Below, piece after piece: positions 977-21,040 of a stretch of 21,378 bases of DNA (the stretch's first letter is position 1; every line of letters starts with the position of its first letter). The translations under genes and the position numbers were made by a program. The notes beneath the pieces are model-generated. The model was not told the DNA's origin. It did no database searches and saw only the letters and a list, made by a program, of their open reading frames with translations. The stretch spans positions 1 through 21,378 of the forward strand of contig PXEK01000402.1 in the NCBI GenBank assembly GCA_003564735.1, given 5' to 3'. This DNA comes from Cryomorphaceae bacterium (lineage in GTDB: Bacteria > Bacteroidota > Bacteroidia > Flavobacteriales_G > Salibacteraceae).

Positions 977-988
977 GGTTCTGACTAA
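977..988 (+). repeat. dispersed 12-mer, copy a (GGTTCTGACTAA)
   Basis: This is a one-mismatch copy of the dispersed GGYTCTGACCAA motif. It lies in the 44-nt gap between the convergent DUF2805 and LysM genes, preceded by TTTTC and followed by an A-run. No hairpin of its own is visible, so it is not simply a terminator stem. Confidence 0.6.
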
Positions 989-997
989 AAAAACAAT

Positions 998-2893
998 TTA
1001 ACGAACCAACACTTTTTCGTAATCATCAATTTCGTAGATGTAAAAGCCTTGGTTTTCAAAACCTGTGTAGCTGTCAATTCTGATGAAGTTAAAACGACTT
1101 GAGAGTCCGGTGCGAATATATGTCGGCAGTTTGTAATGCATAAACTCACCGTACTTCATGAGTCCTCCAAAAAAATACACACCCGCATCGTAAGCGGTAA
1201 GTACATCTTGGTGAGGATCTGCTTTATATTTTGACCGATAAGCCTGAATAAATCTGATAGTCGTCGTATCGTTGTAATTGACCCAACTATCGGTTACCAG
1301 TCTCGTATTCAAACGTTGAAAATACTCTGTATCTAAATTATCAAAGCGCCTCCAACTTTCCATACCGTACACTGTGACAGAAATCCCTTTCCCTTTCAGA
1401 ACCAAATCATTGAGTGAAGTCACGAACTCACTCATGTAGGCTTGGTCATTTGAAGGAACGAACAAAGTGTAATGCGTACTATCTTCAAACAATGACCTTA
1501 CATTCTTTTTTGAGGGCGTGTACAAACTCATTTCTTTTAGGCTGTCAGAACCCAGTTGAGCCGCACATATATTCGCATGTTTAAGCGCCGTGGCATACGT
1601 ATCTCGATCTTTAAACCTTCCGCTGTTCCAAATGACCAAGTTAGAATCAATGTGCTCACTTACCACATGATAGGCCAGTTGCATCAATTTTGACCCGGCT
1701 CCCGGCTTTATCTTAACGGCGTTATTTCTTTCAATCAATATTTTAGATGGTAATGAAACAGGGGATATCACAGGAATGGCCGACTCCTTCGCCAGATCGG
1801 CAAACCACTCAAAATTACTGCGGAACAACGGCCCGAATACCAAATCAAACTCGGGGAGTGAATCCTCAAAAGAGCGTTTGAGGGAATCGAGATTGGTCTC
1901 GGTATCATAAAGGTGAATATCTGCATTAAACCCCTTTTTTGTAAGTGAATCCGCAGCGGCAATCAACCCCCTGTAAAGGTTTAGTGCTGTTACGGAAGGT
2001 GAGGGTAAAATGAATTTTCCTTGTTCTTTGTACACTCTTTGGGCCGAATCATGTAACAATGACGAAAAGGGCATGAGCACACCAATTTGAAAAGTACGAT
2101 AACGGTCCAGCTGTTGGATGAGTGAATCGACCTTCAAGGTATCACGTTTTGTTCCTGTTTTAGCCGTATCCGCTATAAGAGTGTCCGCAACAGATGTGTC
2201 TGAAGCGGTTGGCAAAGGCATTACACTTACATTTTTCACGGGAATCCTAATGGTGGTTCCTTCTTTCAAACCCCGAGAAAGTCCGCCGTTTGCCCATTGA
2301 ATAGAATCAACAGAAACGTTGTATCTTTTCGAAATGGAAAAAAGCGTTTCTTTCTTTTTTACGATGTGAATTTCAAATGAGTCCACTTTTGGTGGCTGCA
2401 TCACCTCCGGTTCAGCGTCATCGCCTTGGGCATAGGGTATTTTTAAACGTATGCCGGGTTGAAGTCCGCGCTCTTCAATTTGCGGATTGTACTTTTTGAT
2501 TTCCTCAATATCGATACTGTACTTTTTACTCAACGAATACAGCGTTTCCTTTCGGTGAACTTCGTGAGTGAGATAGCCGCCACCATCGAGTGTGATATCG
2601 ATTCTCCTAAACTTTTTGCGGTTCATGGCATCTCGCGGAATCAAAACCGTTTGGCCAATTTTTAAATCGCGCTCTTTGAGCTCGGGATTGGCCTCCAGCA
2701 AATCATCAACCGAACAAAAGTACTTTTTCGAAATTCCGAACAAGGTTTGCCCGGCCTCAACCTTATGTACTAAAAACTTTTCACCGTTATGCTTTACGGT
2801 TTCGGGAGTATCTTGTGCTTCCACCCTCGTTGTGGTTAAACACATAACATTTAGGAAACAAAATAAAAGTACGTAAAGGCGTTTGTGCGTCAT
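998..2893 (-). CDS. Secreted LysM-repeat protein with periplasmic-binding (PBP1-like) domain
   Basis: A 631-residue envelope protein. An N-terminal signal peptide (hydrophobic residues about 6-20, probable cleavage near VEA/Q) is followed by three LysM repeats at roughly 41-86, 108-152 and 174-218, each with the GQTL/KETL...YNxSVDxI...IRIP pattern that binds peptidoglycan glycan chains. From about 270 to the end is a domain starting FQIGVLMPF that resembles type 1 periplasmic-binding folds of amino-acid ABC receptors. Such LysM-PBP1 proteins are common in Bacteroidota; no transporter genes are nearby, so a structural or sensory role is as likely as transport. The frame extends to an ATG at 2899, but the ATG at 2893 overlaps the guaA stop as ATGA, which favours translational coupling and is used here. 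Ligand unknown. Confidence 0.88.
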
Positions 2894-4419
2894 TCCCATT
2901 CAATTGTTGCCGGTGGTTTAGAGCTGATATCGTAAGTAACGCGATTAATTCCGCGCACATTATTGATAATCTTATTCGAAATTTGTGCCAAAAATTCGTA
3001 GGGTAGTTTACACCAGTCTGCGGTCATCCCGTCAGTACTCTCGACGGCCCTGAGCGCCACAGCGTTTTCATAAGTTCTTTCATCGCCCATTACCCCTACC
3101 GATTGAACGGGTAAAAGTATGGCTCCTGCCTGCCACACTTCATCATACAGCCCGGCGTTTCTCAACCCTTGAATGAAAATATGATCTACTTCCTGTAAAA
3201 TACGAACTTTTTCGGGCGTAATATCGCCGGGAATACGAATGGCCAATCCCGGGCCCGGGAAAGGATGCCGACCAATCAATCTCTCCGGCAAGTTCAGCTC
3301 CCGACCTACCCTTCTTACCTCATCTTTGAAAAGCGCATTTAAAGGCTCCACAACTTTCAACTTCATAAAATCGGGGAGTCCGCCCACGTTGTGGTGCGAT
3401 TTAATGGTAGCGCTGGGGCCTTTTACCGATACAGACTCAATTACATCAGGGTAAATAGTGCCTTGTCCCAACCATTTTACATCCTTTATTTTTCCGGCCT
3501 CATCGTCAAAAATCTCAATGAATGTATTGCCGATGATTTTTCTTTTTTTCTCGGGGTCTGTAACGCCCTTGAGCTTATCGTAAAACGGCTGTTTGGCATC
3601 GACACCTTTTATGTTTAACCCCAAGTCTTTGTAATCTTCTAAAACTTGTTCAAACTCATTTTTTCTCAGCAATCCGTTATCCACAAAAATGCAATACAAA
3701 TTCTCACCAATTGCTTGATGCAGTAAAGTAGCTGCTACAGAAGAGTCGACACCGCCCGATAAACCCATAACCACCTTATCATTTCCCAACTTTGCTTTTA
3801 AATCGGCAACGGTATCTTCAACAAAAGATGCGGGCGTCCAGTCGCATGCACACTTACAAATATCGACCAAAAAGTTTTTGAGTAGTACCTTTCCGTCAAC
3901 GGAGTGATACACCTCAGGGTGGAATTGGATTCCGTAAGTACGTTCATTCTCAAGTTTAAAACCCGCGACTTCTACATCCCCGGTACTGCAAATAAGTTGA
4001 GCATTAGGCGGTAGTTCCAGGATCGTATCCCCATGAGACATCCAAACTTGTGAGCCCGGTGAAATACCGTGTAACAAATCACTTTGAGCATTCACATGAG
4101 ATAAATTAGCTCTGCCGTACTCTCGAGTTTGTGAAGCTTCCACCTTACCTCCGTTATTTTTGGCAAGCCATTGAGCGCCATAGCAAACACCTAAGAGCGG
4201 CAACTTTCCTCGAATTTGACTTAAATCGGGACGCGGTGCATCCTTTTCTCTTACAGAGTGCGGACTTCCCGATAATATCACTCCTCTAACGGATTCGTCT
4301 ATTTCCGGAATATTGTTAAACGGGTGAATTTCGCAGTACACATTTTGCTCCCTCACCCTCCTGCCTATCAGTTGAGTATATTGGGAACCGAAATCTAAAA
4401 TCAATATTTTCTCTTGCAT
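2890..4419 (-). CDS. guaA: GMP synthase (glutamine-hydrolysing), GuaA
   Basis: GuaA converts XMP, ATP and glutamine to GMP in the cytosol, the last step of guanylate synthesis. The 509-residue protein has an N-terminal class I glutamine amidotransferase domain (start [12 protein letters not shown]; nucleophile Cys79 in GVCYGAQW; His167 and Glu169 in FHPEV), then the ATP pyrophosphatase P-loop SGGVDSS at about 221-227, and a C-terminal dimerisation domain ([12 protein letters not shown], ending [12 protein letters not shown]). The frame can be read back to a TTG at 4446, but that codon sits inside a TAnnTTTG promoter box (4444-4451), so the ATG at 4419 must be the start; 509 residues fits the family. 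It is first in a two-gene unit with the LysM gene, overlapping by ATGA. Very secure. Confidence 0.98.
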
Positions 4420-4443
4420 TCGATACGGAGTCTGTTTGGGGTG

Positions 4444-4451
4444 CAAATGTA
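4444..4451 (-). promoter_or_regulatory. -7 promoter box (TACATTTG) of guaA
   Basis: TACATTTG on the minus strand matches the Bacteroidota sigma-ABfr -7 consensus TAnnTTTG exactly. It ends 24 nt before the guaA ATG, giving a predicted leader of about 20 nt. A -33 TTG is not obvious. The box rules out the TTG start at 4446. Confidence 0.65.
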
Positions 4452-4595
4452 CAACTTAAAAAGTGTCCGTTAACGGATTGCCCCCCTCTTTGCGTTTGAG
4501 TTTTCGTTTCCTTTCCTTAGGGTGACCGCGGAAAAAGTGAATAGTAAAACAAAAAACAGTGTGTAGAGTAAACTGCGTGATTACGTATATTTTTT

Positions 4596-4603
4596 TATCT
4601 TTG
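4596..4603 (+). promoter_or_regulatory. -7 promoter box (TATCTTTG) of the TPR gene
   Basis: TATCTTTG matches TAnnTTTG and lies 46 nt upstream of the ATG at 4650. It faces away from the guaA box, so the 4420-4649 gap is a divergent promoter region. No clear -33 TTG is visible. Confidence 0.6.
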
Positions 4604-4649
4604 AGCCGCAAATGTCGACGTACCCAAGTCACACCTTTACACCCTTGAT

Positions 4650-5479: not shown

Positions 5480-5491
5480 ATTATTAAGCGT

Positions 5492-6022: not shown

Positions 6023-8962
6023 ATGAAGCAGAAGAGTCAGATTACTAAACCTAAGCATTTTGAAGGTGAATTTTATACCCAAAATGTACACAAAACAGCT
6101 TACGCAACTGATGCCTCAGCATACAAAGAACACCCTTGTGCCGTGGCCGTTCCCAAAACACCGGAAGACATAAAGAAACTTATTCAAACAGCCGCTGAAA
6201 ACAATTTAGGCCTCATACCCCGTGCAGGAGGTACATCATTGGCCGGGCAAGTTGTGGGGAACGGTATTGTGGTTGACGTTACAAAATACCTAAATATTAT
6301 ACTCGAAGTCAACACCGAGAAGAGGTTTGCAAGAATACAACCCGGAATTGTACGCGATGAACTTAACCGAGTATTGACAAAACAAGGGCTTTTTTTCGCA
6401 CCCGAAACTTCTACATCAAACCGCGCTACACTGGGCGGAATGACAGGCAATAATTCTTGCGGCGTGAACTCTATTAAATACGGCAACACCCGAGACAAAC
6501 TATTGGAGGTAAAAGCCATTTTATCTTCCGGTGAAGAAGTTACTTTTAAAGCACTGACGAAAGCTGAATACCAAGCCAAACTCCATGGAGAAACAAGTAC
6601 GCCGCACGAGCGCAAAATTTACGAGCACATCGATCAACTATTGACATCGAAACACAGCCGAACACTCATCGAACAAAACTTCCCCAAAAAGGAGGTAACA
6701 CGCCGTAACCACGGATATGCGCTTGATGCCCTGATGAACTTCACGACTTTCGGTGGTTCTGACCAAAGAATAAATTTATGTGACCTCATTGCAGGCTCTG
6801 AAGGAACATTGGCTTTCATAACGGAATTAAAAGTGGCTTTGGACCCTTTACCTAATCACAGTGAAGCTTTGGTGTGTGCACATTTTGACGACCTTTACGA
6901 ATCGCTGGAGGCCACGGTAACAGCCATGAAATACGAGCCTGAAGCCGTTGAACTCATGGATCACCACATCTTGGAACGCACCAAAAACAGCTTGAAATAT
7001 CGAGAAAATCGTTTCTTTCTTGAAGGTGACCCCGCAGCCGTTTTAGTAATTACACTATCCGGCGAAAATGACGATGCACGAGATGAAAAAATCAATGCGC
7101 TTATTGCCGATTTTAAGGAAAAAAATATCGGCTACAGTTTTCCTGTGATATCGGGTGCGGACAGTAAAAAAGTATGGGATTTGCGAAAGGCGGGACTGGG
7201 TTTGTTATCAAATAAACCGGGCGACTTAAAACCGGCGCCGGTGATTGAAGATACTGCCGTGGCCGTTGAAGATTTACCTTCATACATCAAAGATTTCAAC
7301 GCAACTTTGAGAAAATATAACTTAGAGTGCGTTCACTATGCCCACGCCGGTGCAGGTGAATTGCATTTACGACCCGTTCTCAACCTAAAAACCAAAGAGG
7401 GCAGGATTTTATTCAGAACCATACTCAAAGAGGTGGCCGGGCTGGTGAAAAAATACCGTGGGTGCTTGAGCGGAGAGCACGGCGACGGCCGACTCCGCGG
7501 GGAGTTTATACCGTTTATGCTTGGAGAAGAAATTTACGCGGAATTCAAAAAGCTGAAGCACGTTTGGGATCCTGCCGGAGTGATGAATCCGGGAAAAATA
7601 GTAAATACCCCACCAATGAACGAGTCGCTCCGTCAACCCGAGGGTTTCCATACGCCGGAAATACCCACAATATTCAATTGGGATACCAACCAAGGGTATG
7701 TGAGAGCATCTGAACAATGTAACGGCTCGGGAGATTGCCGAAAAAGCGCTCTCGCAGGCGGCACAATGTGCCCCACCTACCACGCCACAGGCGATGAAAT
7801 TCAGACTACCCGCGCCAGAGCCAACATTATTAGAGAGGTTTTTTCATCTCAAACGACGAATGATGCCTTTACATCACAAGAAATCAAAACCGTTACCGAT
7901 ACTTGCATAGGATGTAAGGGATGCAAGAGTGAATGCCCGTCAAACGTCGATATGACCCGACTCAAAGCCGAATTTGATTACGGTTACGGAAAACGAAAAG
8001 GGTTTTCACCTGCTTCTCGATTGACGGCAAACTTTGACACAGCCCTGGCCCTGGGCTCAACTGCACCAAAATTGTTCGATTTACTCACCCGCCCGACGGG
8101 AATAACCGGTCAAGTTTTACAACGGTTGGGCTTTTCAAAAAAACGAAAACTTCCCGTACCCTCAAAAGTACCGCTCACCAAGTGGTACCATCGCCATTAC
8201 AAACCACCTCGCAGACCATTAAAGGAAATATATCTTTTTGCCGATTTATTTACGACCTATCTCGATACCGAAATTGGTGTGAAAGCACTAAAACTACTTA
8301 CAGCACTCGATTACAAGGTTAATATTGTCCCTCACGCTGATAGCGGCCGAACCTACCTCTCGGCAGGCTTTTTGCCTCAAGCCAAACGTCGCGCCGAAAA
8401 AAACATAAAAGTTTTTTACAAGCTCGTAAGTGAAGATAAGCCGCTACTGGGCATCGAACCCTCTGCCATACTATCATTTAGAGACGAATACCCCGACTTG
8501 ATTAGTGAAGACCTAAGGGAAAAAGCAAAAACAGTGAGTAATCACGTATTTTTGATTGACGAGTTTTTTGCCGCAGAGTTTGAGGCCGGAAATATTAGTC
8601 CGGCTCAATTCACAAAAGATGAAAGAGAGATACTGCTTCACGGCCACTGCCATCAAAAAGCCCTTTCATCAATGAGTCACACCAAAAAAATACTGCAAAT
8701 CCCAAGAAACTATTCGACCCGACTCATCCCCTCAGGTTGCTGCGGTATGGCGGGATCTTTCGGTTACATGGATAAAAACCATGACCTTTCCATGAACATT
8801 GGAGAAACCGTACTTTTTCCTAAAATACGCTCTAACCTCCACAAAACCATTGCCGCTACGGGGCACAGTTGCAGGCATCAAATTCAGGACGGTACAGGCG
8901 TAAAAGCGCTACACCCGGTTGAAATTTTATACGACGCTCTACGACCCGATTTAAAAATATAA
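6023..8962 (+). CDS. FAD-binding and Fe-S oxidoreductase (D-2-hydroxyacid dehydrogenase type, YdiJ/DLD-like)
   Basis: A 979-residue two-part enzyme. Residues ~35-270 are a PCMH-type FAD-binding domain (PRAGGTSLAGQ at 67-76, GGMTGNNSCGVNSIKYGNTRD at 138-158, AGSEGTLAF at 257-265). Residues ~275-530 form the FAD-oxidase C-terminal domain (HAGAGELHLRP, SGEHGDGRLRGEF, MNPGKIV). The C-terminal half has Fe-S ligands Cys566/572/583 and the CxxCxxCxxxCP cluster at 628-638, then a CCG-type domain with HGHCHQKA (873-880) and SGCCGMAGSFGY (904-915). This is the architecture of D-lactate/D-2-hydroxyglutarate dehydrogenases such as E. coli YdiJ, which oxidise a D-2-hydroxyacid and pass electrons through Fe-S centres. 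The substrate cannot be read from sequence. The Cx5C spacing of the first cluster is, as I recall, normal for YdiJ relatives. The GNAT-nitrilase gene starts 22 nt after the stop. Confidence 0.93.
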   Translation: MKQKSQITKPKHFEGEFYTQNVHKTAYATDASAYKEHPCAVAVPKTPEDIKKLIQTAAENNLGLIPRAGGTSLAGQVVGNGIVVDVTKYLNIILEVNTEKRFARIQPGIVRDELNRVLTKQGLFFAPETSTSNRATLGGMTGNNSCGVNSIKYGNTRDKLLEVKAILSSGEEVTFKALTKAEYQAKLHGETSTPHERKIYEHIDQLLTSKHSRTLIEQNFPKKEVTRRNHGYALDALMNFTTFGGSDQRINLCDLIAGSEGTLAFITELKVALDPLPNHSEALVCAHFDDLYESLEATVTAMKYEPEAVELMDHHILERTKNSLKYRENRFFLEGDPAAVLVITLSGENDDARDEKINALIADFKEKNIGYSFPVISGADSKKVWDLRKAGLGLLSNKPGDLKPAPVIEDTAVAVEDLPSYIKDFNATLRKYNLECVHYAHAGAGELHLRPVLNLKTKEGRILFRTILKEVAGLVKKYRGCLSGEHGDGRLRGEFIPFMLGEEIYAEFKKLKHVWDPAGVMNPGKIVNTPPMNESLRQPEGFHTPEIPTIFNWDTNQGYVRASEQCNGSGDCRKSALAGGTMCPTYHATGDEIQTTRARANIIREVFSSQTTNDAFTSQEIKTVTDTCIGCKGCKSECPSNVDMTRLKAEFDYGYGKRKGFSPASRLTANFDTALALGSTAPKLFDLLTRPTGITGQVLQRLGFSKKRKLPVPSKVPLTKWYHRHYKPPRRPLKEIYLFADLFTTYLDTEIGVKALKLLTALDYKVNIVPHADSGRTYLSAGFLPQAKRRAEKNIKVFYKLVSEDKPLLGIEPSAILSFRDEYPDLISEDLREKAKTVSNHVFLIDEFFAAEFEAGNISPAQFTKDEREILLHGHCHQKALSSMSHTKKILQIPRNYSTRLIPSGCCGMAGSFGYMDKNHDLSMNIGETVLFPKIRSNLHKTIAATGHSCRHQIQDGTGVKALHPVEILYDALRPDLKI
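6755..6766 (+). repeat. dispersed 12-mer, copy b (GGTTCTGACCAA)
   Basis: An exact copy of the dispersed motif inside the FAD oxidoreductase gene, where it encodes GSDQ in a loop just before the conserved GSEGTLAF segment. It reads in the gene's sense direction. Confidence 0.7.
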
Positions 8963-8983: not shown

Positions 8984-10522
8984 ATGGCAACTAACGATAA
9001 ACTCGGTCAAATTGAAAATATAGAAATAGTACAGCTGGAACGAGTAGATTATGAAGACATCAAACAAGCCATGATTGAATCATATTCTAACCTGCAGGAA
9101 CCATTTTGGGAACGGGAAGAATTCAACAGCCTCATCAGTAAATTCCCTCAAGGCCAAATAGGCATTAAAGTAAACGGCGAATTAGCGGGTTGTGCCCTTT
9201 CTATAATCGTTGATTCTTCACAAATTGACAAAAAACATTCGTACAAAGAAATAACTGCAAACTACTCCTTTACAACCCACACCGACAAAGGCGACAAGCT
9301 TTACGGTGTCGATATTTTTATCAGACCCAAGTTTAGAGGTTTGCGACTGGCGCGCAGACTATATGACTACAGAAAAGAGTTGTGTGAGCAACTGAACTTA
9401 AAGGGAATTCTATTTGGAGGGCGCATCCCGGGTTATCACAAATACTCCGGAGAGATGACGGCCAAAGAATACATCGATAAAGTGCGCAATAAAGAAATTC
9501 ACGACGCCGTTCTCGACTTTCAACTCTCCAATGATTTTCACCCGGTACGAATCATAAAAAACTACCTCGAAGGTGATGACGGTTCACAAGAGTACGGTGT
9601 ACTTTTAGAGTGGGGTAATGTGTATTACGAACCCGAAAATACCAAAACTCTCCCCGGCAAAAGTATTGTTCGATTGGGCTTGATACAATGGCAAATGAGA
9701 TTGTATAAAGATTTGGACGAACTCATGCGTCAAGCCGAATTTTTCATTGATGCGCTGTCAGGATATAAATCTGATTTTGCTCTTTTCCCCGAGTATTTCC
9801 ATGCACCATTAATGGCTGAGTATAATGAACTCTCAGAGCCCGAAGCCATTAGAGCACTTACTGTATATAATGATCGTATAGTGCAAAGATTTTCAGAGCT
9901 TGCTATATCCTATAACATTAACATTATAACGGGTAGTATGCCGGAAATGGTTGACAACAACCTTTATAATGTGGGTTACTTATGTAAGCGAGACGGACAC
10001 GTAGAGCGCTACGAAAAAATACACGTTACACCCGACGAAACTAAAGTGTGGGGCTTACAAGGAGGAAACAAAATTCAAACCTTCGATACCGATTGCGGAA
10101 AAATAGGAATACTCATTTGTTATGACGTGGAATTTCCCGAATTGAGTAGGCTACTGGCCGATGAAGGGATGAACATACTTTTCGTACCCTTCCTCACCGA
10201 TACGCAAAACGGATATTCCAGAGTGCGACATTGCGCGGCTGCAAGAGCCATTGAAAATGAATGCTATGTAGCCATTGCAGGCAGTGTGGGCAACTTACCT
10301 AAAGTACACAATATGGATATTCAATACGCACAATCGGCATTGTTCACACCCTGCGATTTTGCTTTCCCGTCAGACGGAATTAAAGCGGAAGCGACACCTA
10401 ACACGGAAATGACGTTAATTGCCGATGCAGACTTAGACTTACTCAAAGAACTGAATTTATACGGCAGCGTGCAAAACCTGAAAAACAGAAGGACAGATAT
10501 TTACAAGGTGACTAAAAAATAA
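8984..10522 (+). CDS. Bifunctional GNAT acetyltransferase / carbon-nitrogen hydrolase (nitrilase superfamily)
   Basis: A 512-residue fusion. The N-terminal ~210 residues are a GNAT domain (VDIFIRPKFRGLRLARRLYDYRK at about 109-131, holding the acetyl-CoA loop; GILFGGRIPGYHKY follows). Residues ~228-505 are a nitrilase-superfamily domain with the catalytic triad visible: Glu270 in LFPEYFHAP, Lys345 in YEKIHVTPDE and Cys379 in GILICYDVEFPE. Length and order match the GNAT-nitrilase family exemplified by B. subtilis YhcX (about 513 residues). Nitrilase-superfamily enzymes hydrolyse amides or nitriles; the substrate here is unknown. The 22-nt gap and shared strand suggest co-transcription with the FAD/Fe-S oxidoreductase, ending at the hairpin at 10651-10679. 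No signal peptide, so cytosolic. Architecture secure, chemistry open. Confidence 0.94.
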   Translation: MATNDKLGQIENIEIVQLERVDYEDIKQAMIESYSNLQEPFWEREEFNSLISKFPQGQIGIKVNGELAGCALSIIVDSSQIDKKHSYKEITANYSFTTHTDKGDKLYGVDIFIRPKFRGLRLARRLYDYRKELCEQLNLKGILFGGRIPGYHKYSGEMTAKEYIDKVRNKEIHDAVLDFQLSNDFHPVRIIKNYLEGDDGSQEYGVLLEWGNVYYEPENTKTLPGKSIVRLGLIQWQMRLYKDLDELMRQAEFFIDALSGYKSDFALFPEYFHAPLMAEYNELSEPEAIRALTVYNDRIVQRFSELAISYNINIITGSMPEMVDNNLYNVGYLCKRDGHVERYEKIHVTPDETKVWGLQGGNKIQTFDTDCGKIGILICYDVEFPELSRLLADEGMNILFVPFLTDTQNGYSRVRHCAAARAIENECYVAIAGSVGNLPKVHNMDIQYAQSALFTPCDFAFPSDGIKAEATPNTEMTLIADADLDLLKELNLYGSVQNLKNRRTDIYKVTKK

Positions 10523-11360: not shown

Positions 11361-12341
11361 TTACAAGAACCAAAAGTTATCTCCCTCAATCCACCCTCTC
11401 TTCAGCAGATAGGCTATCATACTAATTCTTTGACTAGTTGCGGGCCAAACCGTAATGAGTATTTGAGGATTCATTACCTCATCAAGATATGCTACAGGTT
11501 TAATTCCCTTATGCTCGGTAAGTCCTACCCGAGTAAAATGAATACCTCGCCGCTCAAGCACATCAATAGTTAAATCGGCTTTTACACCCTCACCCAAAAC
11601 CACAACAGGTCTACGTTCATGCCAATCCGTATCACACCAAAAATTAATTTTCAACTCAAAAAAACGCTGTTGACTGTAATCATTAGAGTTGAGAGAGGTT
11701 CTACTTTCATGGTGTCGCCACAAATGAGTAATCTTATCAATTCCCACGAAAGGCACCCCGGCGGCATACAGCTTCAAAATCAAGTGATAATCCTCAGGAT
11801 AACTCAACTCCTCAAAACACTGTGTTGGCCCAAGCAAAAAAGAAGACAACAACCAATTTGGCGAGGCAACGGCGCACTCCCTGTACATGAATCTGTGAAA
11901 ATCATTATTTTTCACACAGCTATTCAGCCATTTTTCATACTCCGTATAGCCCCTACTCACCGCTTTTTTTCCAAAATACTTCACCTTTCCCGTAACCAAA
12001 CTCCCCGGATTTTTCACGGCAGCATTGAATAAGGTTTCCAGTTTATCGGGAGGCATTAAATCATCAGCATCCATTCTAGTGATGTATTCCCCCTGAATGT
12101 GTAATATACCGGTTTGTAAAGCCGAAATAATGCCGCTTTTTTTATTGGTCAGAACCGAAATACGCTCATCCTCGATCGCAAATTCACGCACAATACTCGC
12201 AGATTCATCCTCGCTGCCATCATCAACAGCCAACAACTCCCAACGCGTGTAGGTTTGAAACTGTATGGTTTTCAAACATTCAGCAAGCCACGGCGCCGCA
12301 TTTTTAAACGGCATAACAATCGAAATCAGCCCTTTTTTCAC
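11361..12341 (-). CDS. Family 2 glycosyltransferase with C-terminal Rossmann-like extension
   Basis: A GT-A fold glycosyltransferase, about 326 residues. After the start come ISIVMPFKNAAPWL, the nucleotide-binding VDDGSEDES and the metal-binding RMDADD (DxD), all in the first ~120 residues; SYPEDYHLILKLY marks the acceptor-side motif. From about residue 245 there is a separate segment, PVVVLGEGVKADLTIDVLER, ending KRGWIEGDNFWFL, resembling a small nucleotide-binding Rossmann-like domain. Sugar and acceptor are unknown; a role in surface polysaccharide is usual for GT2 enzymes. The frame can be read to a TTG at 12353, but that codon overlaps a possible -7 box (TTTATTTG, 12351-12358 on the minus strand), so I use the GTG at 12341 (MKKGLISIVMPF); the ATG thirteen codons after the TTG would cut into the first strand. 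It is divergent from typA. Confidence 0.85.
   Translation of the reverse strand: MKKGLISIVMPFKNAAPWLAECLKTIQFQTYTRWELLAVDDGSEDESASIVREFAIEDERISVLTNKKSGIISALQTGILHIQGEYITRMDADDLMPPDKLETLFNAAVKNPGSLVTGKVKYFGKKAVSRGYTEYEKWLNSCVKNNDFHRFMYRECAVASPNWLLSSFLLGPTQCFEELSYPEDYHLILKLYAAGVPFVGIDKITHLWRHHESRTSLNSNDYSQQRFFELKINFWCDTDWHERRPVVVLGEGVKADLTIDVLERRGIHFTRVGLTEHKGIKPVAYLDEVMNPQILITVWPATSQRISMIAYLLKRGWIEGDNFWFL
12145..12156 (-). repeat. dispersed 12-mer, copy c (GGTTCTGACCAA)
   Basis: An exact minus-strand copy inside the GT2 gene, in a frame that encodes V-L-T-N rather than the GSDQ of copy b. It faces away from copy d, 328 nt to the right. Confidence 0.7.
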
Positions 12342-12389
12342 ACGACAAAACAAATAAATGTTTTCGTGTTACAACTAAATCAATTACCT

Positions 12390-12484: not shown

Positions 12485-12496
12485 GGTTCTGACCAA
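12485..12496 (+). repeat. dispersed 12-mer, copy d (GGTTCTGACCAA)
   Basis: An exact copy in the untranslated leader of typA, ending 7 nt before the ATG. It is followed by AAAATTT. Being non-coding, it shows that the motif is not a by-product of a protein sequence. Confidence 0.7.
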
Positions 12497-12503: not shown

Positions 12504-14315
12504 ATGAAATCTATTAGAAATATTGCCATTATCGCTCACGTTGACCACGGCAAAACGACTTTGGTTGATAAAATCATGTTCCGTTGCGAAACGGCGCAAA
12601 GTAAAAGTGATAACACTGAGTTGATTCTCGACAACAACGATTTAGAGCGCGAAAGAGGTATTACCATCGTTTCCAAGAATATTTCGGTTACGTATAAGGA
12701 CACCAAAATTAACATCATCGATACTCCCGGTCACGCCGATTTTGGGGGTGAGGTGGAACGCGTACTCAATATGGCCGACGGCGTTCTTTTACTTGTTGAC
12801 GCTTTTGAAGGTGCCATGCCGCAAACCCGTTACGTTCTCTCCAAGGCCATTGAATTGGGTAAAAAACCCATAGTAGTGGTAAATAAGGTCGATAAAGAAA
12901 ATTGCCGACCCGACGAGGTTCAAGAAGAGGTTTTTGATTTAATGTTCAACCTTGGCGCTACTGAAGATCAATTGGATTTCCCCACCATTTACGGATCGGC
13001 AAAAAACGGCTGGATGAGTACCGACCATAACGAACCTACTGATAATGTAGATGCTTTGCTCGATGCGGTACTGGAATACATTCCCGAACCTAAAGTTGAA
13101 GAGGGTAGTTTGCAAATGCAAATCACCTCTATTGACTTTAGCTCTTTTGTGGGTAGAATTGCCATTGGCCGTGTAAAAAGGGGAGAACTCAAAGCCGGCC
13201 AAAGGGTAACGTTGATGAAACGCGACGGAACAGCAAAAAAAGCAACGGTAAAAGAACTGTACGTTTTTGAAGGTCTGGGTAAAATTAAGGCCGATAATGT
13301 TACAGCGGGTGATATTGCTGCAATTACGGGGGTTCAAGATTTCGATATCGGTGATACGGTTGCCGATGCCGAAAATCCCGAAGCTCTACCTACCATTCCC
13401 GTAGATGAACCTACAATGAGTATGGTGTTTACGGTAAATAACTCTCCGTTTTTTGGTAAAGACGGTGAATTTGTTACTTCGCGTCACTTGCGCGAACGTT
13501 TGTTTAAGGAAACCGAGAAAAACTTGGCGCTTAAAATTGAAGAAACCGACTCTCCCGACTCATACAACGTATTCGGCAGGGGTGTGATGCACCTATCGGT
13601 TTTGATCGAAACCATGCGACGCGAAGGATATGAATTGCAAGTGGGTCAGCCACAAGTAATCATAAAGCACGTAGACGGTAAAAAAATGGAACCTATTGAA
13701 ATGCTTTACATCGATGTTCCCGAAAGTACATCGGGTAAAGTGATTGAAGTGGTAACCAAGCGAAAAGGCGAAATGAAAGTGATGGAAGAACGCGGTGATG
13801 TGATGCACTTGGAGTTTGAAATTCCATCGCGCGGCATCATGGGTATGCGTACTCAAATTTTGAACGTATCATCGGGCGAGGCCGTTATGGCACACCGTTT
13901 TTCAGAGTTTGGTGAGTGGCGCGGCGATATCCCTAAAAGAACTGCCGGAGTGCTTATGGCACACGAACCCGGGACGGTTATCGCCTATGCTCTTAACAAC
14001 TTACAAGACAGAGGTAAGTTTTTTGTGGAGCCGGGCGAAGAAGTGTATGAAGGGATGATTGTAGGCGAACATTCACGCGATAACGATTTATCGGTGAACG
14101 TGACCAAAACAAAAAAACTGACCAACATGCGAAGCGCGGGTGCCGATGATAAAACTAAAATAGCACCCAAAATTGATTTATCACTAGAAGAGAATCTCGA
14201 GTATATCGATGCTGACGAATATGTGGAAGTTACTCCCAAAAACATCAGACTTCGTAAAATTTACTTGAAGGAACACGAAAGAAAAAAATTCGCTAACAAG
14301 GTGGGAATAGGATAA
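12504..14315 (+). CDS. typA: Translational GTPase TypA/BipA
   Basis: A 603-residue ribosome-binding GTPase. The G motifs are all present: G1 AHVDHGKT (11-18), G2 RGIT (51-54), G3 DTPGH (73-77), G4 NKVD (127-130) and G5 GSAK (about 164-167). EF-G-like domains follow ([29 protein letters not shown]; ending [12 protein letters not shown] and the TypA-specific C-terminal domain with TPKNIRLRK). Length is normal. TypA assists 50S assembly and translation under stress, notably in the cold. The start ATG at 12504 is followed by the canonical [14 protein letters not shown]. The gene stands alone, with its own promoter, an approximately 100-nt leader and a strong terminator at 14349-14385. Confidence 0.98.
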
Positions 14316-14400: not shown

Positions 14401-14571
14401 TTACTCCCGGCCCGTTCCGGTGAAATTATGAAACGTGTACAACACTCGGTTCTGAATATCTCTATAAACAAAGTAGCCGCGCGTAAAAACTTCCCTCGAA
14501 AAATTCACCGCACAACAATCCGGTACTTTTTTGCGCGTTGTAAAACAAGTTAAGATACATTCGGCATTCAA
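14401..14571 (-). CDS. Possible small ORF or gene remnant (56 codons)
   Basis: In the gap between the typA terminator and lptF/G, the minus strand holds an open frame from a TTG (14571) to TAA (14401). Its second half reads like real protein (SREVFTRGYFVYRDIQNRV, then LYTFHNFTGTGRE), while the first part is Cys-rich and less convincing. There is no ATG, no promoter box and no recognised family. It may be chance or the tail of a decayed gene. Listed only because the stretch is otherwise unexplained. Confidence 0.2.
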   Translation of the reverse strand: MNAECILTCFTTRKKVPDCCAVNFSREVFTRGYFVYRDIQNRVLYTFHNFTGTGRE

Positions 14572-16056: not shown

Positions 16057-16060
16057 CGTG

Positions 16061-17245
16061 ATGAATATTTTACAAATCTGTCACAAGCCCCCCTACCCCG
16101 ATACCGACGGCGGCACTATGGCTTCTTACAGTATTTTGCGCGGACTACGAGAGTTGGGGCATAACGTTAGTGTATTCGCCCTCACCACCCCTAAGCATCC
16201 TAAAAAAGAGGTTGGTGATCCCATATTGAACAACATTGACATACACTATGCGCACGTCAATACCCAAGTGCGACCGCTAAAAGCCCTGCGCGGCCTATTC
16301 GAAAAACACTCTTATCACATCAGTAGATTTTACAAGGAGGAAGCCGCCGCCAAACTAAAGCTCTTTCTCGAAAAAAACACCTTTGACCTCATCATATTTG
16401 AATCGCTTTTTACTGCGGTTTATTTACCTTTGGTCAGAACCAAAACCAATGCACCGTGCATCTACAGAGAGCACAACATCGAATCGGCTTTATGGAAACA
16501 ACGAGAGCAAAAAGCACCGCTCCCCGCATCACTCGTTTTAAAAAATTTCAACAAAAAACTCAACCGATTCGAGTTTGATATCGTAAACGAATTTGACGGT
16601 ATTGCTTGTATTTCGAAGAGTGATGCCCAAACGTTGGCTTCAAAAGGCCTTACTAAACCTGTAAAGTATATCCCGTTTTCTTACACGAATCGCGCCGCAG
16701 CCACCGAGAATCACGCCCCGCCAAATCCCGATAAAATCGGATTTATAGGTGCATTAAACTGGGAGCCAAACATTGAAGGTTTGAGCGTTTTTATAAGGGA
16801 GGTTTGGCCTATGGTTCATAAAAAACACCCGAAGCTCAAATTTCATATTGCCGGAAGAGGGAAAAACACAAAATTGGAAAAACTAAGTTCGAACAGTATC
16901 ACCTTTGAAGGGGAAGTCGCCTCAGCTCCACAGTTTATGAGGAGCTGCACTGTTTTAGTAGTACCCCTTTATGAAAGCAGCGGCGTGAGGGTAAAACTCA
17001 TTGAGGCCTCAGCGCTTGCCGTACCCGTAATCACCACTCCGGCCGGAATAAAAGGTTTGGAAATGCCCGCCGACGGAATTGCGGTTTGTGAGTCAGCACG
17101 GGAGTTCGCCTACCAAATTTCAAAAATGATTGAAAATCCGCACTACGCTCAAAAGCGTGGCGAAAAAGCGAAGAAATATATCGCCGAGTACCTCTATCCC
17201 GCACAAACCGCGCAACAGCTTATTGAATTTGTAAAAGGTCTGTAA
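16061..17245 (+). CDS. GT-B glycosyltransferase (GT4-like)
   Basis: A 394-residue cytosolic glycosyltransferase with two Rossmann domains. The N-terminal one begins MNILQICHKPPYPDTDGGTMASYSILRGLRELGH, where the PxxGG loop is typical of GT4 enzymes; YREHNIESALW follows. The C-terminal nucleotide-sugar domain starts at IGFIGALNWEPNIEG and includes FHIAGRGKN and VVPLYESSGVRVKLIEASALAVPVITT, with the E-x9-E carboxylates that contact the donor sugar. The frame includes a GTG at 16058 directly before the ATG at 16061; the ATG is chosen. It lies 4 nt after the LptF/G-type gene, which is suggestive of a role in LPS or another surface glycan, though donor and acceptor are unknown. Confidence 0.9.
   Translation: MNILQICHKPPYPDTDGGTMASYSILRGLRELGHNVSVFALTTPKHPKKEVGDPILNNIDIHYAHVNTQVRPLKALRGLFEKHSYHISRFYKEEAAAKLKLFLEKNTFDLIIFESLFTAVYLPLVRTKTNAPCIYREHNIESALWKQREQKAPLPASLVLKNFNKKLNRFEFDIVNEFDGIACISKSDAQTLASKGLTKPVKYIPFSYTNRAAATENHAPPNPDKIGFIGALNWEPNIEGLSVFIREVWPMVHKKHPKLKFHIAGRGKNTKLEKLSSNSITFEGEVASAPQFMRSCTVLVVPLYESSGVRVKLIEASALAVPVITTPAGIKGLEMPADGIAVCESAREFAYQISKMIENPHYAQKRGEKAKKYIAEYLYPAQTAQQLIEFVKGL
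16430..16441 (-). repeat. dispersed 12-mer, copy e (GGTTCTGACCAA)
   Basis: An exact minus-strand copy inside the GT-B gene. The coding strand therefore carries the complement, which encodes L-V-R-T. Antisense placement argues against an mRNA-level function for the motif. Confidence 0.7.
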
Positions 17246-17338: not shown

Positions 17339-17349
17339 GTATTTGAAAC

Positions 17350-19149
17350 ATGCGGGAAAAAGAATTCATAAAAAACAACGGCTCCAAGTGGCGCGAATTT
17401 GAAAATGAAGTGAATAAACGCAAGAGTGACCCTGAAAAACTCAGTAAACTCTACGTTCAAATTACCGATAACCTCTCATTTGCGCGCACCAACTTCAACA
17501 ACCGCACCGTGAGGTTTTACCTCAACACCCTTAGCCAAAACCTATACTTGACCGTACATAAAAACCGACTTCCCGAAAAAAAGAACGTTCAAAACTTTTG
17601 GATGGAAGAACTTCCCGCCACACTTTACCACACTCGAAAACAACTCCTCACCTCCCTCATCGTATTTCTTATCGCCGTCCTTATTGGCGTTTTTTCTACC
17701 CATCAAGACCCCGACTTTGCACGCGCCATATTGGGCAACAACTACATCAATAACACACTGGCTAACATTGAAAAAGGAGACCCCGGCGCGGTGTATAAAG
17801 ACCCTGACGCCTTAGTTATGTTCTTGCAAATTACCGCCAACAACATATACGTTTCGTTTCTGGTTTTTGTACTGGGCATCTTGGCGGGATTGGGAACCGT
17901 GGGACTCCTCATTTCAAACGGCGTTATGTTGGGTACTTTTCAATACTTCTTTTTCACCCAAGGCGTTGGTTTTGAATCGGCATTAATTATTTGGCAACAC
18001 GGCACCATAGAAATAGCAAGCATCGTTATTGCGGGAGGAGCCGGTATTGTATTGGGTCAAGGCTTTATTTTTCCCGGTTCATACACTCGGGCACAATCGC
18101 TGAAAAACAGCGCACAAAAGGGACTCAAAATCATGTTGGGGCTCGTGCCCATGTTTGTTTTGGCCGGACTCATAGAAAGCTTCGTTACGCGCCAAACCGA
18201 ATTGCACGTCATCATACGCTTGGGCGTAATCATACTTTCTGCGGTACTCATCATCGGCTACTACGTGGTAAAACCCCTTACCCTGCCCAAAGCTACGCTC
18301 GAAAAATACCGGTTTACCGGCGTTAAAAAGCAATACCCCGCACAACCGGTCAACCTTGAAACAGACAAAACGCAATCGCAACTCCTCAAGGAAACCTTTA
18401 GCCTTACCACCTCCGTTATTTCCCGACAAATACTGCCCTTTTTACTCATAGCCGCGGCCGGTGCGGGAATAATAATCGCCTTTTCGCCGGAGGTTTACAC
18501 CCATTTGGGGCAATCGGTAATATACAGTTTGCACGGACTCAACCTCTTTTTAAACTTTGCCGAAATGCCGCAACACTTTACGTTATTCACACTCACTACG
18601 GCCACCGCCGCTTTTTTCACCGCAAGAGCCGTGCAATCCAAATTAAAAGTCAACTACACCCTAAAACCCAAAAGCTATATTTTAGCCTACCTGATTACCG
18701 CTCTTTTTGCCTGCATATTTTTTATTTCGGGACAGCTGCAATTTATATTGGCCGTTTTACTTACTCCGTTGTTTTTCCACGCCCTTAACCTACTGTTTTT
18801 AAATCGATTCACAACCAAAGAATTACTCATGCCCGTCAAAAAGCCCTGGTTTATATTCGGCAGTTATCTCGGTCTCGCACTTTTATCACTGGGAATATTG
18901 ATTTTATTGAACCAACCCATCGTCGGACTCTACGCCGGTCAAGTGCTAAAAATCATTCCCGTTGAAGAGGAAACCGCCGCACAAATTGGGGAGTTTCTCC
19001 TGTTTTTCGTACAGCAATTTACCTTCACCATACTCAGCGCACTTTTCACCACCTACGCCTTTTTAGCCTATCATCACCAATGGGAAGCCCACACCGCCTC
19101 GGCCCTCATCAAAAAACTACAAAGCGTAAAATACCAATCACAAACATGA
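17350..19149 (+). CDS. SpoIIM-type (DUF95) membrane protein fused to a second membrane domain
   Basis: A 599-residue polytopic membrane protein. Residues 1-~325 match the Bacteroidota stage II sporulation protein M family: start MREKEFIKNNGSKWREFE, hydrophobic segment near 98-116, then the conserved NNIYVSFLVFVLGILAGLGT, QGVGFESALIIWQHGTIEI and GFIFPGSYTRAQSLKNSAQKG. The organism need not sporulate; the name is historical. Such proteins are usually about 320 residues. Here the frame continues through KTQSQLLKETFSLTTSVISR into a further ~270 residues with about six membrane segments (from about 350 to 575) that I recognise only loosely, as similar to a separate membrane protein often found in this cluster in flavobacteria. 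No stop or frame break separates the halves. It heads an operon with DUF4129 and DUF4350 genes (ATGA overlap at the end). Function unknown. Confidence 0.85.
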   Translation: MREKEFIKNNGSKWREFENEVNKRKSDPEKLSKLYVQITDNLSFARTNFNNRTVRFYLNTLSQNLYLTVHKNRLPEKKNVQNFWMEELPATLYHTRKQLLTSLIVFLIAVLIGVFSTHQDPDFARAILGNNYINNTLANIEKGDPGAVYKDPDALVMFLQITANNIYVSFLVFVLGILAGLGTVGLLISNGVMLGTFQYFFFTQGVGFESALIIWQHGTIEIASIVIAGGAGIVLGQGFIFPGSYTRAQSLKNSAQKGLKIMLGLVPMFVLAGLIESFVTRQTELHVIIRLGVIILSAVLIIGYYVVKPLTLPKATLEKYRFTGVKKQYPAQPVNLETDKTQSQLLKETFSLTTSVISRQILPFLLIAAAGAGIIIAFSPEVYTHLGQSVIYSLHGLNLFLNFAEMPQHFTLFTLTTATAAFFTARAVQSKLKVNYTLKPKSYILAYLITALFACIFFISGQLQFILAVLLTPLFFHALNLLFLNRFTTKELLMPVKKPWFIFGSYLGLALLSLGILILLNQPIVGLYAGQVLKIIPVEEETAAQIGEFLLFFVQQFTFTILSALFTTYAFLAYHHQWEAHTASALIKKLQSVKYQSQT

Positions 19150-19802
19150 GATTACGCATCCATTTACTTATGCTCCTTTCGCTGTTTTTGGTCAGAGCCG
19201 AACCCAATGCTCAGCCCTTATCTCCCGAAGAGTGGGAAAAAATAACCCGTGATTTAGATTATACCGAGGAGAAAGAAGAAATAGAATACAGTACCGAAGG
19301 TTGGGAACAAGACCACTCGTCAAGCGCCTTCTCTGAATTTTTAAATCAATTCTTAACCGTTCTTCCGTATATTGTTCTTACCCTGTTGGCCGGATTTATC
19401 GTTTACTTCATCATCTCGAAATACCGAGGGCCGGAGAAAAAATTGGAAAAAATCAAATCTGAAATTTCAACCGCCGAAGAAAATATTGAAGAGGCCGATT
19501 TAATTAAACTCCTCCAAAAAGCGAATAAAACCGGAGATTACCGACTCATATTGCGAATTTACTACTTGATGATTCTCAAATCACTAACACTTGAAAAGCA
19601 TATACGATACGCCCCTAAAAAAACAAACCGAGATTATTTGTACGAAATAAAAAACAGTGAAATCAAATCCCGCTTTAGTTCCATTACCATGGACTTTGAC
19701 CGATTGTGGTACGGAAAATCTCGCCTAAACGAAACCGAATTTGAAAAACAAAAAAGTCGTTCCATCAAGCTCTTAAGCGAGCTAAAAAATAATCCCGAAT
19801 GA
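19146..19802 (+). CDS. DUF4129 domain protein with signal peptide and one membrane segment
   Basis: A 218-residue membrane-anchored protein. Start ATG 19146 overlaps the previous stop as ATGA and yields a proper signal sequence (MRLRIHLLMLLSLFL, then VRAEPNAQ); the longer frame from 19080 lacks this and lies within the upstream gene. A charged extracytoplasmic stretch is followed by a membrane segment (LPYIVLTLLAGFIVYFII, about 73-91) and a C-terminal cytosolic helical DUF4129-like domain (ADLIKLLQKANKTGDYRLIL, RIYYLMILKSLTLEKHI, TNRDYLYEI, RLWYGKSRLNETEFE). This family accompanies SpoIIM-like, DUF4350 and often MoxR/DUF58 genes in Bacteroidota; its molecular role is not known. Copy f of the dispersed motif falls in the signal-peptide coding region. 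Confidence 0.85.
   Translation: MRLRIHLLMLLSLFLVRAEPNAQPLSPEEWEKITRDLDYTEEKEEIEYSTEGWEQDHSSSAFSEFLNQFLTVLPYIVLTLLAGFIVYFIISKYRGPEKKLEKIKSEISTAEENIEEADLIKLLQKANKTGDYRLILRIYYLMILKSLTLEKHIRYAPKKTNRDYLYEIKNSEIKSRFSSITMDFDRLWYGKSRLNETEFEKQKSRSIKLLSELKNNPE
19188..19199 (-). repeat. dispersed 12-mer, copy f (GGCTCTGACCAA)
   Basis: A minus-strand copy with C at position 3. It lies in the signal-peptide region of the DUF4129 gene, where the coding strand gives L-V-R-A and introduces an Arg near the cleavage site. Confidence 0.6.
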
Positions 19803-21040
19803 AAAGAGTCGGCACATATTTGATTTTGGGTTTCATCGGTTTGTTGACACTAACAGCGGGCTGCAAAAAAGCGTACAATTGGAACATTACTCTTCGTGAG
19901 GAGGGCAAACAACCCTACGATTTATACGTTTTCACCCAATTACTCAAAAATGCTGTCGGCTCTGACCAATATTATAATCCCGAATACGATTTACTCAACA
20001 CATTAGATCAAGTTCCCGCCAAAACCTTATACATATCAGCCGGTTTTTGGCAATCTTATTCGCCCGAAGAAATGAGCAGATTAAGGGAATTTGTAAACCG
20101 GGGCGGCTCCGTATTGGTGGTTTCAGGCGCGTTTCAACAAGTGCTTGCCGATTCCCTGTGCGATTTGAACCTTTTGGGACGACTACCCGCCGATTCCGTA
20201 CCACCGCAATCATTGCGCTTGAGTAGCTTTAACGATTCCATACCCATTCTGAAACATACCGGCAGCGGTAAAGCAAGCGAGATGTATTACAAAGTTCAAA
20301 ATCGCATTTCACCGGTGAATTGGGAGTATTATTCCGATTCAGTAATGCAAGCGGCAAAAGCGCGCAAACGACTGCTTCTAAACAATACATATCCGATTGC
20401 CATTGAAATGCCTTCGTGGAAAGGTAAAGTGATTTTTATGTCTGAAGCCTTGCCGCTCACCAATTACCACATGAAAAATGAAGACAACTTTGAGGTAATC
20501 AACAGTTTGATGGACGATTTTGATTTTGAAGCCGTGATTTTTGATAGAAGTCGGCGTTTTCAAAATATGCAACAGAGCGACTTTGACCAAAGTCCGCTCT
20601 TTTACTTCTTTAAATTCAAGGGATTCCGATTCGCCTGGCTCACCTTGTTGGCATTGGTACTGCTCTATTTGCTTTTCAACTATAAGCGGCGCACACGAGT
20701 TATGCAATTGATGCCGGACAAATCGAATAAAAGTTTGATGTACGTAGAAACCATTTCCTTAATGTACTATAAGAACAGAGCACATTTGGCGATAGCCAAA
20801 ATAGCCGCCAAAATATTTTTGTTTGACGTGCGGCGCAAGTACCGCATCAACACGTCAAAGCTCGACGACGATTTTGTGGAATTGCTCGCGGAAAAAACAA
20901 ACCTGCCCTACAAAAGCGCCAAGTTAATGCGAGATAAAATACACGCGCTCAAGGGTATTAACCAATTGTCAGAAGAAGGTTTCCTGAGCTTTTTCCAATT
21001 GCTGAATAGGTTCAAAAAAGTAATTCATGCGAACGGGTAG
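19799..21040 (+). CDS. DUF4350 domain protein
   Basis: A 413-residue envelope protein. The ATG at 19799 overlaps the previous stop as ATGA. Residues 4-22 are hydrophobic and end LTAGC-KK; this resembles a lipobox but has Thr at -3, so it is either a lipoprotein signal or a membrane anchor. The extracytoplasmic part (YDLYVFTQLLKNAV, TLYISAGFWQSYSPEEMSRLREFVNRGGSVLVVSG) has the Rossmann/GATase-like DUF4350 fold, followed by a membrane segment near 280-297 (FAWLTLLALVLLYLLFNY) and a cytosolic helical tail (LMYVETISLMYYKNRAHLAI to FFQLLNRFKK). Family partners in this cluster are often MoxR ATPase and DUF58 genes; none follows within the window. Copy g of the dispersed motif encodes GSDQ at residues 54-57. 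Function unknown. Confidence 0.87.
   Translation: MKRVGTYLILGFIGLLTLTAGCKKAYNWNITLREEGKQPYDLYVFTQLLKNAVGSDQYYNPEYDLLNTLDQVPAKTLYISAGFWQSYSPEEMSRLREFVNRGGSVLVVSGAFQQVLADSLCDLNLLGRLPADSVPPQSLRLSSFNDSIPILKHTGSGKASEMYYKVQNRISPVNWEYYSDSVMQAAKARKRLLLNNTYPIAIEMPSWKGKVIFMSEALPLTNYHMKNEDNFEVINSLMDDFDFEAVIFDRSRRFQNMQQSDFDQSPLFYFFKFKGFRFAWLTLLALVLLYLLFNYKRRTRVMQLMPDKSNKSLMYVETISLMYYKNRAHLAIAKIAAKIFLFDVRRKYRINTSKLDDDFVELLAEKTNLPYKSAKLMRDKIHALKGINQLSEEGFLSFFQLLNRFKKVIHANG
19958..19969 (+). repeat. dispersed 12-mer, copy g (GGCTCTGACCAA)
   Basis: A plus-strand copy with C at position 3, within the DUF4350 gene. It encodes the same GSDQ as copy b in an unrelated protein. Together with copy f it forms a back-to-back pair 759 nt apart. 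Confidence 0.6.

What the first reader, a model, noticed from the sequence alone, without database searches (positions are those of the whole stretch)
977..19969. Dispersed 12-mer GGYTCTGACCAA, seven copies in 21 kb on both strands
GGTTCTGACCAA occurs exactly four times (6755+, 12145-, 12485+, 16430-). GGCTCTGACCAA occurs twice (19188-, 19958+) and GGTTCTGACTAA once (977+). A given 12-mer is expected about 0.003 times in a window this size counting both strands, so four exact copies are far above chance. Copies sit in five unrelated genes in at least three different reading contexts (GSDQ, VLTN, LVRT/LVRA) and in two non-coding spots, sense and antisense to transcription, so neither protein conservation nor an mRNA signal explains them. 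The spacing (about one per 3 kb) resembles DNA uptake sequences or Chi-type recombination sites; a nucleoid or segregation protein site is also possible. Partial copies are seen at 14447 (CGGTTCTGA) and 1544-1552 (GTCAGAACC, minus strand).
Basis: partly seen in the sequence, partly recalled or inferred. Interest (0 to 1): 0.78.

Follow-up and report, generated by a model that had tools for sequence, protein, structure and literature searches.

The report
Genus-specific directional DNA signal sequence
A short DNA word is repeated hundreds to more than a thousand times in the genomes of one little-known genus of Bacteroidota bacteria but not in the relatives checked, spaced in a direction-dependent way that suggests a signal for recognising or handling the cell's own DNA.

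Summary
GGYTCTGACCAA occurs 349 times in the held 2.29 Mb draft genome, against 0 for the reversed pattern. The core GGHTCTGACC occurs 480, 1444 and 823 times in the three genomes held of the genus, and 1-25 times in the other 39 genomes of the order. The 12-mer reaches at most 9 copies in 394 other genomes drawn from the phylum. Species differ in dialect. Copies lie on both strands, in genes and between them. The core shows no consistent replication-strand, promoter or terminator preference. Same-orientation copies avoid each other within about 1-2 kb; opposite-orientation copies do not. Each strand thus carries its own more-even-than-random set, which implies a directional signal. It works most like a DNA uptake sequence. 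But the two pilus/T2SS families tested are found in only one of the three genomes, while orthologues in the other two keep copies, so membership is not shown. A long Chi-like site for AddAB is the main rival; an AddB-type nuclease domain is in 36 of 36 genomes tested.

The parts
977..988 (+). GGTTCTGACTAA, one-mismatch copy, between ORFs ending at 953 and 998
1543..1552 (-). GGTTCTGACA, one-mismatch core, sense within ORF 998-2899 (LysM-type by eye)
6755..6766 (+). GGTTCTGACCAA, sense in ORF 6023-8962 (FAD/Fe-S oxidoreductase by eye; peptide GSDQ)
12145..12156 (-). GGTTCTGACCAA, sense in ORF 11361-12353 (glycosyltransferase by eye; peptide VLTN)
12485..12496 (+). GGTTCTGACCAA, intergenic, 7 bases before the start codon at 12504 (TypA/BipA-like by eye)
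14448..14455 (+). GGTTCTGA followed by ATA: the GGTTCTGAAT form that is also over-represented in G002
16430..16441 (-). GGTTCTGACCAA, antisense in ORF 16058-17245 (glycosyltransferase by eye; peptide LVRT)
19188..19199 (-). GGCTCTGACCAA, antisense in ORF 19080-19802 (peptide LVRA)
19958..19969 (+). GGCTCTGACCAA, sense in ORF 19799-21040 (peptide GSDQ)

Best explanation
The 12-mer is the local dialect of a genus-specific chromosomal signal, GGHTCTGACC plus an A-rich 3' side. SHOWN for the three genomes held: 480 to 1444 core copies per genome and background counts in the relatives counted; dialect differences; placement without promoter or terminator preference; same-orientation repulsion. INFERRED: a protein recognises it on double-stranded DNA and acts in one direction over roughly 2-3 kb. 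Most likely it is an uptake-type self-recognition signal: fragments bearing it are preferentially taken up and recombined (ComEC and DprA are encoded), and copies built up by biased uptake plus homologous recombination. The receptor would have to be something other than the usual type IV pilus pilin in at least two of the three species.
For: Counts and genus restriction. Dialects around a shared core. No consistent strand bias of the core (85+/87- on 400 kb of one G001 contig). Intergenic copies ignore promoter/terminator context. Same-orientation pairs under 1 kb: 32 against 84 expected in G001 and 5 against 38 in G002; opposite-orientation pairs: 112 against 84 and 52 against 45. Same-strand gap CV 0.83 and 0.60, against minima of 0.86 and 0.69 in 2000 label permutations. 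In G000, 39 of 53 neighbouring pairs among 106 listed copies are opposite, p = 8e-4. Two motif-free gaps hold defence genes. ComEC in G001 and G002; DprA in all three, partial in G000. G000-G002 orthologues keep the core at 5 of 8 counted sites, 7 of them distinct; identical 10-mers are 4 of 8 at sites against 9% at random positions of the same genes.
Against: T2SSE and T2SSF (core parts of pilus-based uptake machines, recalled) are found in G001 but not over the cut-off in G002 (94% complete) or G000 (83%), yet those two keep the motif. ComEC and DprA also occur in the relatives without the motif and ComEC was not found in G000. Orientation dependence is not a feature of uptake sequences that I can recall. 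No receptor was identified. The largest motif-free stretch (20 kb fetched, G002) is a ribosomal-protein operon, not foreign DNA, and two gaps of about 16 kb in G001 are only mildly more than a Poisson spread gives. G001 has a sense excess inside genes, 207 against 143 (p = 7e-4; G002 113 against 90, p = 0.12). The exact 12-mer has weak, opposite strand biases in G001 and G002.
Confidence: 0.42

Rival explanations
1. A long Chi-like site: the genus's AddAB helicase-nuclease recognises the motif from one side, stops degrading and loads RecA, so the motif marks self DNA for repair.
For: A PDDEXK_1 (AddB-type) domain is present in 36 of 36 genomes tested, including the three of the genus. Orientation-dependent spacing fits a site read from one side. 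It needs no pilus, in line.
Against: Known Chi sites (recalled) are 5-8 bases, modestly enriched and co-oriented with replication. This one is 10-12 bases and more than 100-fold over a third-order Markov expectation for its main 10-mers, and its core has no significant strand bias. The domain is equally present in sister genera, whose sampled stretches (17-60 kb each) show no comparable word. The weak strand bias of the 12-mer in G001 (23 against 7) would fit Chi, but G002 goes the other way.
Confidence: 0.24
2. A binding site for a genus-specific chromosome-organising (nucleoid, domain or segregation) protein that needs regularly spaced, oriented sites.
For: More even spacing per strand, A-rich flank, many copies, no promoter/terminator context.
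Against: Known segregation or terminus signals are strand-biased or confined to one part of the chromosome (recalled); here orientation is mixed locally. Copy number of 480-1444 is far above parS, matS or SlmA-type sites (recalled).
Confidence: 0.15
3. A mobile or repeat element (tiny insertion, transposon end, invertible-segment end).
For: Close inverted pairs occur: 9 in 800 kb of G001 and 5 in 1.11 Mb of G002 under 60 bp. Gaps at sites exceed random in G002 to G001 (3 of 19 against 2%) and G002 to G000 (3 of 9 against 17%).
Against: Between close pairs (under 350 bp) BLAST finds only short matches of 15-34 bases, the longest being stretches shared by overlapping pairs. G001 sites are gapped in G002 no more often than random positions (9 of 56 against 15%). 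Only about 10-14 bases are shared.
Confidence: 0.04
4. A transcription signal (terminator, promoter, attenuator) or peptide-level conservation.
For: Some inverted pairs could form hairpins. G001 has a sense excess inside genes, 207 against 143.
Against: 350 of 367 sites in G001 and 203 of 319 in G002 overlap predicted genes, on both strands and in several frames. Intergenic copies are spread over convergent, tandem and divergent gaps as expected from length.
Confidence: 0.03

Closest known systems
DNA uptake sequences of Neisseriaceae (DUS) and Pasteurellaceae (USS)
   Same: 9-12 base core, hundreds to over a thousand copies, lineage-restricted dialects, both strands, in genes and between them, A/T-rich flank (USS), some inverted pairs (the known side is recalled, not looked up: paper tools failed)
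   Different: Bacteroidota; two of three genomes lack the pilus families tested; spacing depends on orientation; core sequence unrelated apart from a TCTGA shared with the Neisseria DUS (recalled), which may be coincidence
Chi sites of RecBCD/AddAB
   Same: directional, dispersed, self-marking; the enzyme's domain is encoded
   Different: much longer and far more over-represented, no significant strand bias of the core, confined to one genus (comparison recalled)
HIP1 of cyanobacteria
   Same: very abundant short dispersed word in a lineage
   Different: HIP1 is palindromic and denser (recalled); this motif is asymmetric
KOPS, matS, parS and SlmA sites
   Same: dispersed protein-binding DNA words
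   Different: fewer, or strand- or region-biased (recalled); here orientation is mixed and copies are spread over most of the stretches examined

Membership tests
DNA uptake sequence (DUS/USS) | Extreme over-representation of one 9-12 base word | tested here: met
DNA uptake sequence (DUS/USS) | No replication-strand bias | tested here: met
   Core: 193 against 174 (G001) and 144 against 175 (G002) relative to GC skew. The exact 12-mer shows weak opposite biases (23:7 and 86:121). GC skew is a proxy; origin not located.
DNA uptake sequence (DUS/USS) | Lineage-restricted with dialects | tested here: met
   three genomes of the genus
DNA uptake sequence (DUS/USS) | Scarcer in acquired islands | tested here: inconclusive
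   Two defence-gene regions lack it, but so does a ribosomal operon; no overall statistic was made
DNA uptake sequence (DUS/USS) | Type IV pilus uptake machine with a sequence-specific pilin | tested here: not met
   T2SSE and T2SSF in G001, none over the cut-off in G002 and G000; drafts, so absence is probable, not certain; the pilin itself was not searched
DNA uptake sequence (DUS/USS) | ComEC and DprA | tested here: met
   ComEC in G001 and G002, not found in the incomplete G000; DprA in all three, partial in G000; not specific to the genus
DNA uptake sequence (DUS/USS) | Motif raises uptake or transformation | not testable with these tools
   needs a cultured strain
Chi site | AddAB or RecBCD encoded | tested here: met
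   PDDEXK_1 domain in 36 of 36; AddA not searched separately
Chi site | Replication co-orientation | tested here: not met
   core; the 12-mer alone in G001 is biased 23:7, in G002 the other way
Chi site | Short 5-8 base site | tested here: not met
   ten positions matter, position 3 loosely and positions 9-10 softer
Chi site | Recognition by the enzyme | not testable with these tools
   needs biochemistry
Strand-biased segregation signal (KOPS type) | Leading-strand skew | tested here: not met

The most novel reading that the evidence does not exclude
A pilus-independent, directional self-DNA recognition signal in Bacteroidota: a 10-12 base site, read from one side by an unknown double-strand-binding protein, that arose at the root of one genus, diversified into dialects and is kept at about one site per orientation per few kilobases. 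It would be neither a classical uptake sequence nor a classical Chi.
Probability: 0.33. Interest if true: 0.87.

Novelty: new variant of a known kind. Interest (0 to 1): 0.74.

Why it matters
From memory, uptake sequences are established in two bacterial families, both Proteobacteria, and I recall no comparable signal in Bacteroidota. This could not be checked: all nine paper-tool calls failed. A genus that gained such a signal while the sister genera counted did not, and in which two species keep it without the pilus families tested, makes the origin and mechanism of such signals testable. The orientation-dependent spacing is a simple statistic that could separate directional from non-directional models in any genome with dispersed signals.

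Tried and rejected
Mobile element: between close inverted pairs BLAST finds only short matches, the longest shared by overlapping pairs, and G001 sites are not preferentially gapped in G002, though two other directions have more gaps in small samples. Terminator or promoter: no preference. Peptide conservation: several frames, both strands. Hairpin requirement (GGT....ACC): rejected, because position 3 is A, C or T in like numbers in G001. Analogous words in sister genera: 15 genomes sampled at 17-60 kb each. On inspection the top words in G019, G004 and G009 are repeats within one stretch, those in G015 nearly so, and G026's is a CTAG-rich repeat on three contigs; G035's TCTTGACCA (5 in one stretch) was not pursued. 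ATGACTTCG in G005 gives 113 against 69 for the reversed control, so no clear signal (the pattern's gap counts some places twice). A Haemophilus or Neisseria control for the orientation rule could not be set up. Literature: searches failed, so no paper was seen; what is said of known systems is recalled.
Full report
OBSERVATION. The seven copies exist as stated (shuffles mean 0.09, maximum 1, one mismatch allowed). In the window's own draft genome (G000, 2.29 Mb, 406 contigs, 83% complete) the exact 12-mer GGYTCTGACCAA occurs 182 + 167 times and the reversed control 0 + 0.

DISTRIBUTION. In one search (80 genomes including G000) the two same-genus genomes have 150 (G001) and 545 (G002) copies; the other 77 have at most 4. 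With the core GGHTCTGACC, the 42 genomes returned for the order (150 were asked for) were counted: G000 480, G001 1444, G002 823 (reversed control 2, 2, 0). The other 39 have 1-25, with controls of 0-14. In a draw of 395 genomes of the phylum, G000 included, the highest of the 394 others has 9 copies of the 12-mer (a 7.0 Mb genome). G002 is evidently the named record CAJXMT01, 'uncultured Cryomorphaceae bacterium isolate SRR4030052_bin.21': its locus L079 lies in a genome with the same counts as G002 and the same places where both lists can be compared. The G000-L079 comparison is therefore not independent of G000-G002. A second, distant named relative (47% identical protein) has 1 core copy in its genome, control 2.

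ANATOMY. In stretches of G001 (800 kb, 367 core sites) and G002 (1.11 Mb, 319): the core is GG-H-TCTGA-CC. Position 3 is A 137, C 124, T 106 in G001 but T 250, C 60, A 9 in G002. The next two bases are GA 113, GT 81, AA 65 in G001 and AA 214, GA 43 in G002. An A-rich stretch follows (clearer in G002), and T is favoured 3-4 bases upstream. One-mismatch forms at positions 2, 4 and 8 are few (0-5 per letter); positions 9 and 10 are softer. In 400 kb of G001 the three main 10-mers occur 68, 56 and 48 times against 0.3-0.4 expected from a third-order Markov model.

LOCATION. G001: 17 of 367 sites intergenic, with 7.2% of the sequence non-coding by a crude ORF caller. G002: 116 of 319, with 9.7% non-coding. 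Sense and antisense both occur: 207 and 143 in G001, a significant sense excess (p = 7e-4), and 113 and 90 in G002 (p = 0.12). In the smaller set the only rare frame is one sense frame (1 of 172 and 1 of 101 sites), as expected where TGA would be read as a stop. In G001 antisense copies are somewhat commoner in the first part of genes, which I did not follow up. Intergenic copies fall in convergent, tandem and divergent gaps as expected from their lengths.

STRAND. On 400 kb of one G001 contig, where GC skew is negative in every 25-kb block, core copies are 85+ and 87-. Over all stretches the core lies on the G-rich strand 193 times against 174 in G001 (p = 0.35) and 144 against 175 in G002 (p = 0.09). 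The exact 12-mer is biased weakly and in opposite directions: 23 against 7 in G001 (p = 0.005), 86 against 121 in G002 (p = 0.018). I read this as no consistent bias, but it is not a clean zero.

SPACING. Core copies in the same orientation avoid each other. Pairs under 1 kb: 32 observed against 84 expected in G001, 5 against 38 in G002. Opposite-orientation pairs under 1 kb are 112 against 84 and 52 against 45. In G002 same-orientation pairs are in excess at 3-6 kb (122 against 92); in G001 hardly (265 against 247). Same-strand gap CV is 0.83 (G001) and 0.60 (G002); 2000 permutations of orientation labels give minima of 0.86 and 0.69. In G000, among 106 listed copies of the 12-mer (the first 100 of 349 plus the window's 6), 39 of 53 neighbouring pairs are opposite (p = 8e-4); 3 of its 18 neighbouring pairs under 2 kb are in the same orientation. 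Below 500 bp the outward-pointing arrangement is commoner than the inward one, 68 against 37 over both genomes (p = 0.003); at 500-2000 bp it is not (98 against 108). If the site acts on its A-rich side, close inward pairs would be redundant and outward pairs not, which would fit; this is a weak clue. GGHTCTGA not followed by CC shows no clear short-range repulsion, so the rule belongs mainly to the full core.

EVOLUTION. Among 116 G001-G002 orthologue pairs (at least 50% identical proteins), 7 of 56 G001 core sites are intact in G002 and 7 of 19 in the other direction. G000-G002 (22 pairs): 5 of 8 and 5 of 9; one of the 8 is a double count through overlapping ORFs, so 7 are distinct. Identical 10-mers at sites exceed random positions of the same genes: 5 of 56 against 2%, 5 of 19 against 2.5%, 4 of 8 against 9%, 4 of 9 against 6%. 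Sites in G001 lie in slightly less conserved stretches (flank identity 0.50 against 0.54). Their gap share is that of random positions (9 of 56 against 15%), so I infer that they mostly arose by base changes; G002 to G001 (3 of 19 against 2%) and G002 to G000 (3 of 9 against 17%) have more gaps, in small samples.

FOREIGN DNA AND MACHINERY. The largest gap in the G001 stretches (16.5 kb) holds SspB, SspC and SspD-type and Pbe-type defence genes; a 13 kb gap in G002 holds a type IIG-like methylase and AbiEi. The largest gap of all (20 kb, a whole fetched stretch of G002) reads by eye as a ribosomal-protein operon with enolase. Family searches were run only on eight proteins of the first two regions. 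ComEC: 40 of 42 genomes, missing in G000 and in a 54% complete genome. DprA: 35 of 36. PDDEXK_1: 36 of 36. T2SSE over the cut-off: 15 of 42 genomes, G001 among them, not G000 or G002. T2SSF: 14 of 36, again G001 but not G000 or G002. G001 has a pilin-like/ATPase/PilC-like cluster on contig 13 (pilins by eye). If incompleteness acted independently, the chance of missing such a cluster in both drafts is about 0.06 x 0.17, near 1%. Motif-free relatives such as G003-G006 also carry T2SSE and T2SSF, so these genes do not track the motif.

INTERPRETATION. Copy number, genus restriction, dialects, lack of promoter or terminator preference and retention in orthologues point to a DNA-level signal under selection or drive. 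The orientation rule says the signal has a direction and a reach of a few kilobases. Uptake-type self-recognition explains most of this but not the missing pilus families; a Chi-like site explains direction and pilus independence but not length, enrichment or strand balance. I put uptake-type first (0.42), Chi-like second (0.24) and chromosome organisation third (0.15). Membership in the uptake-sequence family is not claimed, because the pilus criterion was tested and not met in two of three genomes.

LIMITS.

Noticed in passing
L165 (G001 contig 13) 5338-14347: Type IV pilus/T2SS-like cluster (pilin-like proteins by eye, T2SSE ATPase, T2SSF protein) in G001; neither family found over the cut-off in G002 or G000.
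   Followed up: partly
L158 7653-19066 (G001 contig 2): Defence island with SspB, SspC and SspD-type genes and a PbeA-type helicase beside a PbeC/LmuB-like ATPase, inside a 16.5 kb stretch without the core motif.
   Followed up: partly
L064 7953-13442 (G002 contig 3): Region with a type IIG-like methylase and AbiEi, also without the core motif.
   Followed up: partly
G002 stretches L059-L078; window 7413- and 14448+: A second form, GGTTCTGAAT, is over-represented in G002 (22 against 0.9 expected in 388 kb) and occurs in the window; its relation to the CC form is unclear.
   Followed up: partly
G001 and G002 core sites: Intergenic share differs sharply between species: 116 of 319 in G002 against 17 of 367 in G001, unexplained.
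   Followed up: no
G001 core sites inside genes: Sense excess (207 against 143) and antisense copies commoner early in genes, unexplained.
   Followed up: no
G001 and G002, exact 12-mer: Weak strand biases against GC skew in opposite directions (23:7 and 86:121), unexplained.
   Followed up: no
window 8984-10522: ORF that looks like an acetyltransferase fused to a carbon-nitrogen hydrolase (by eye; no family search made).
   Followed up: no
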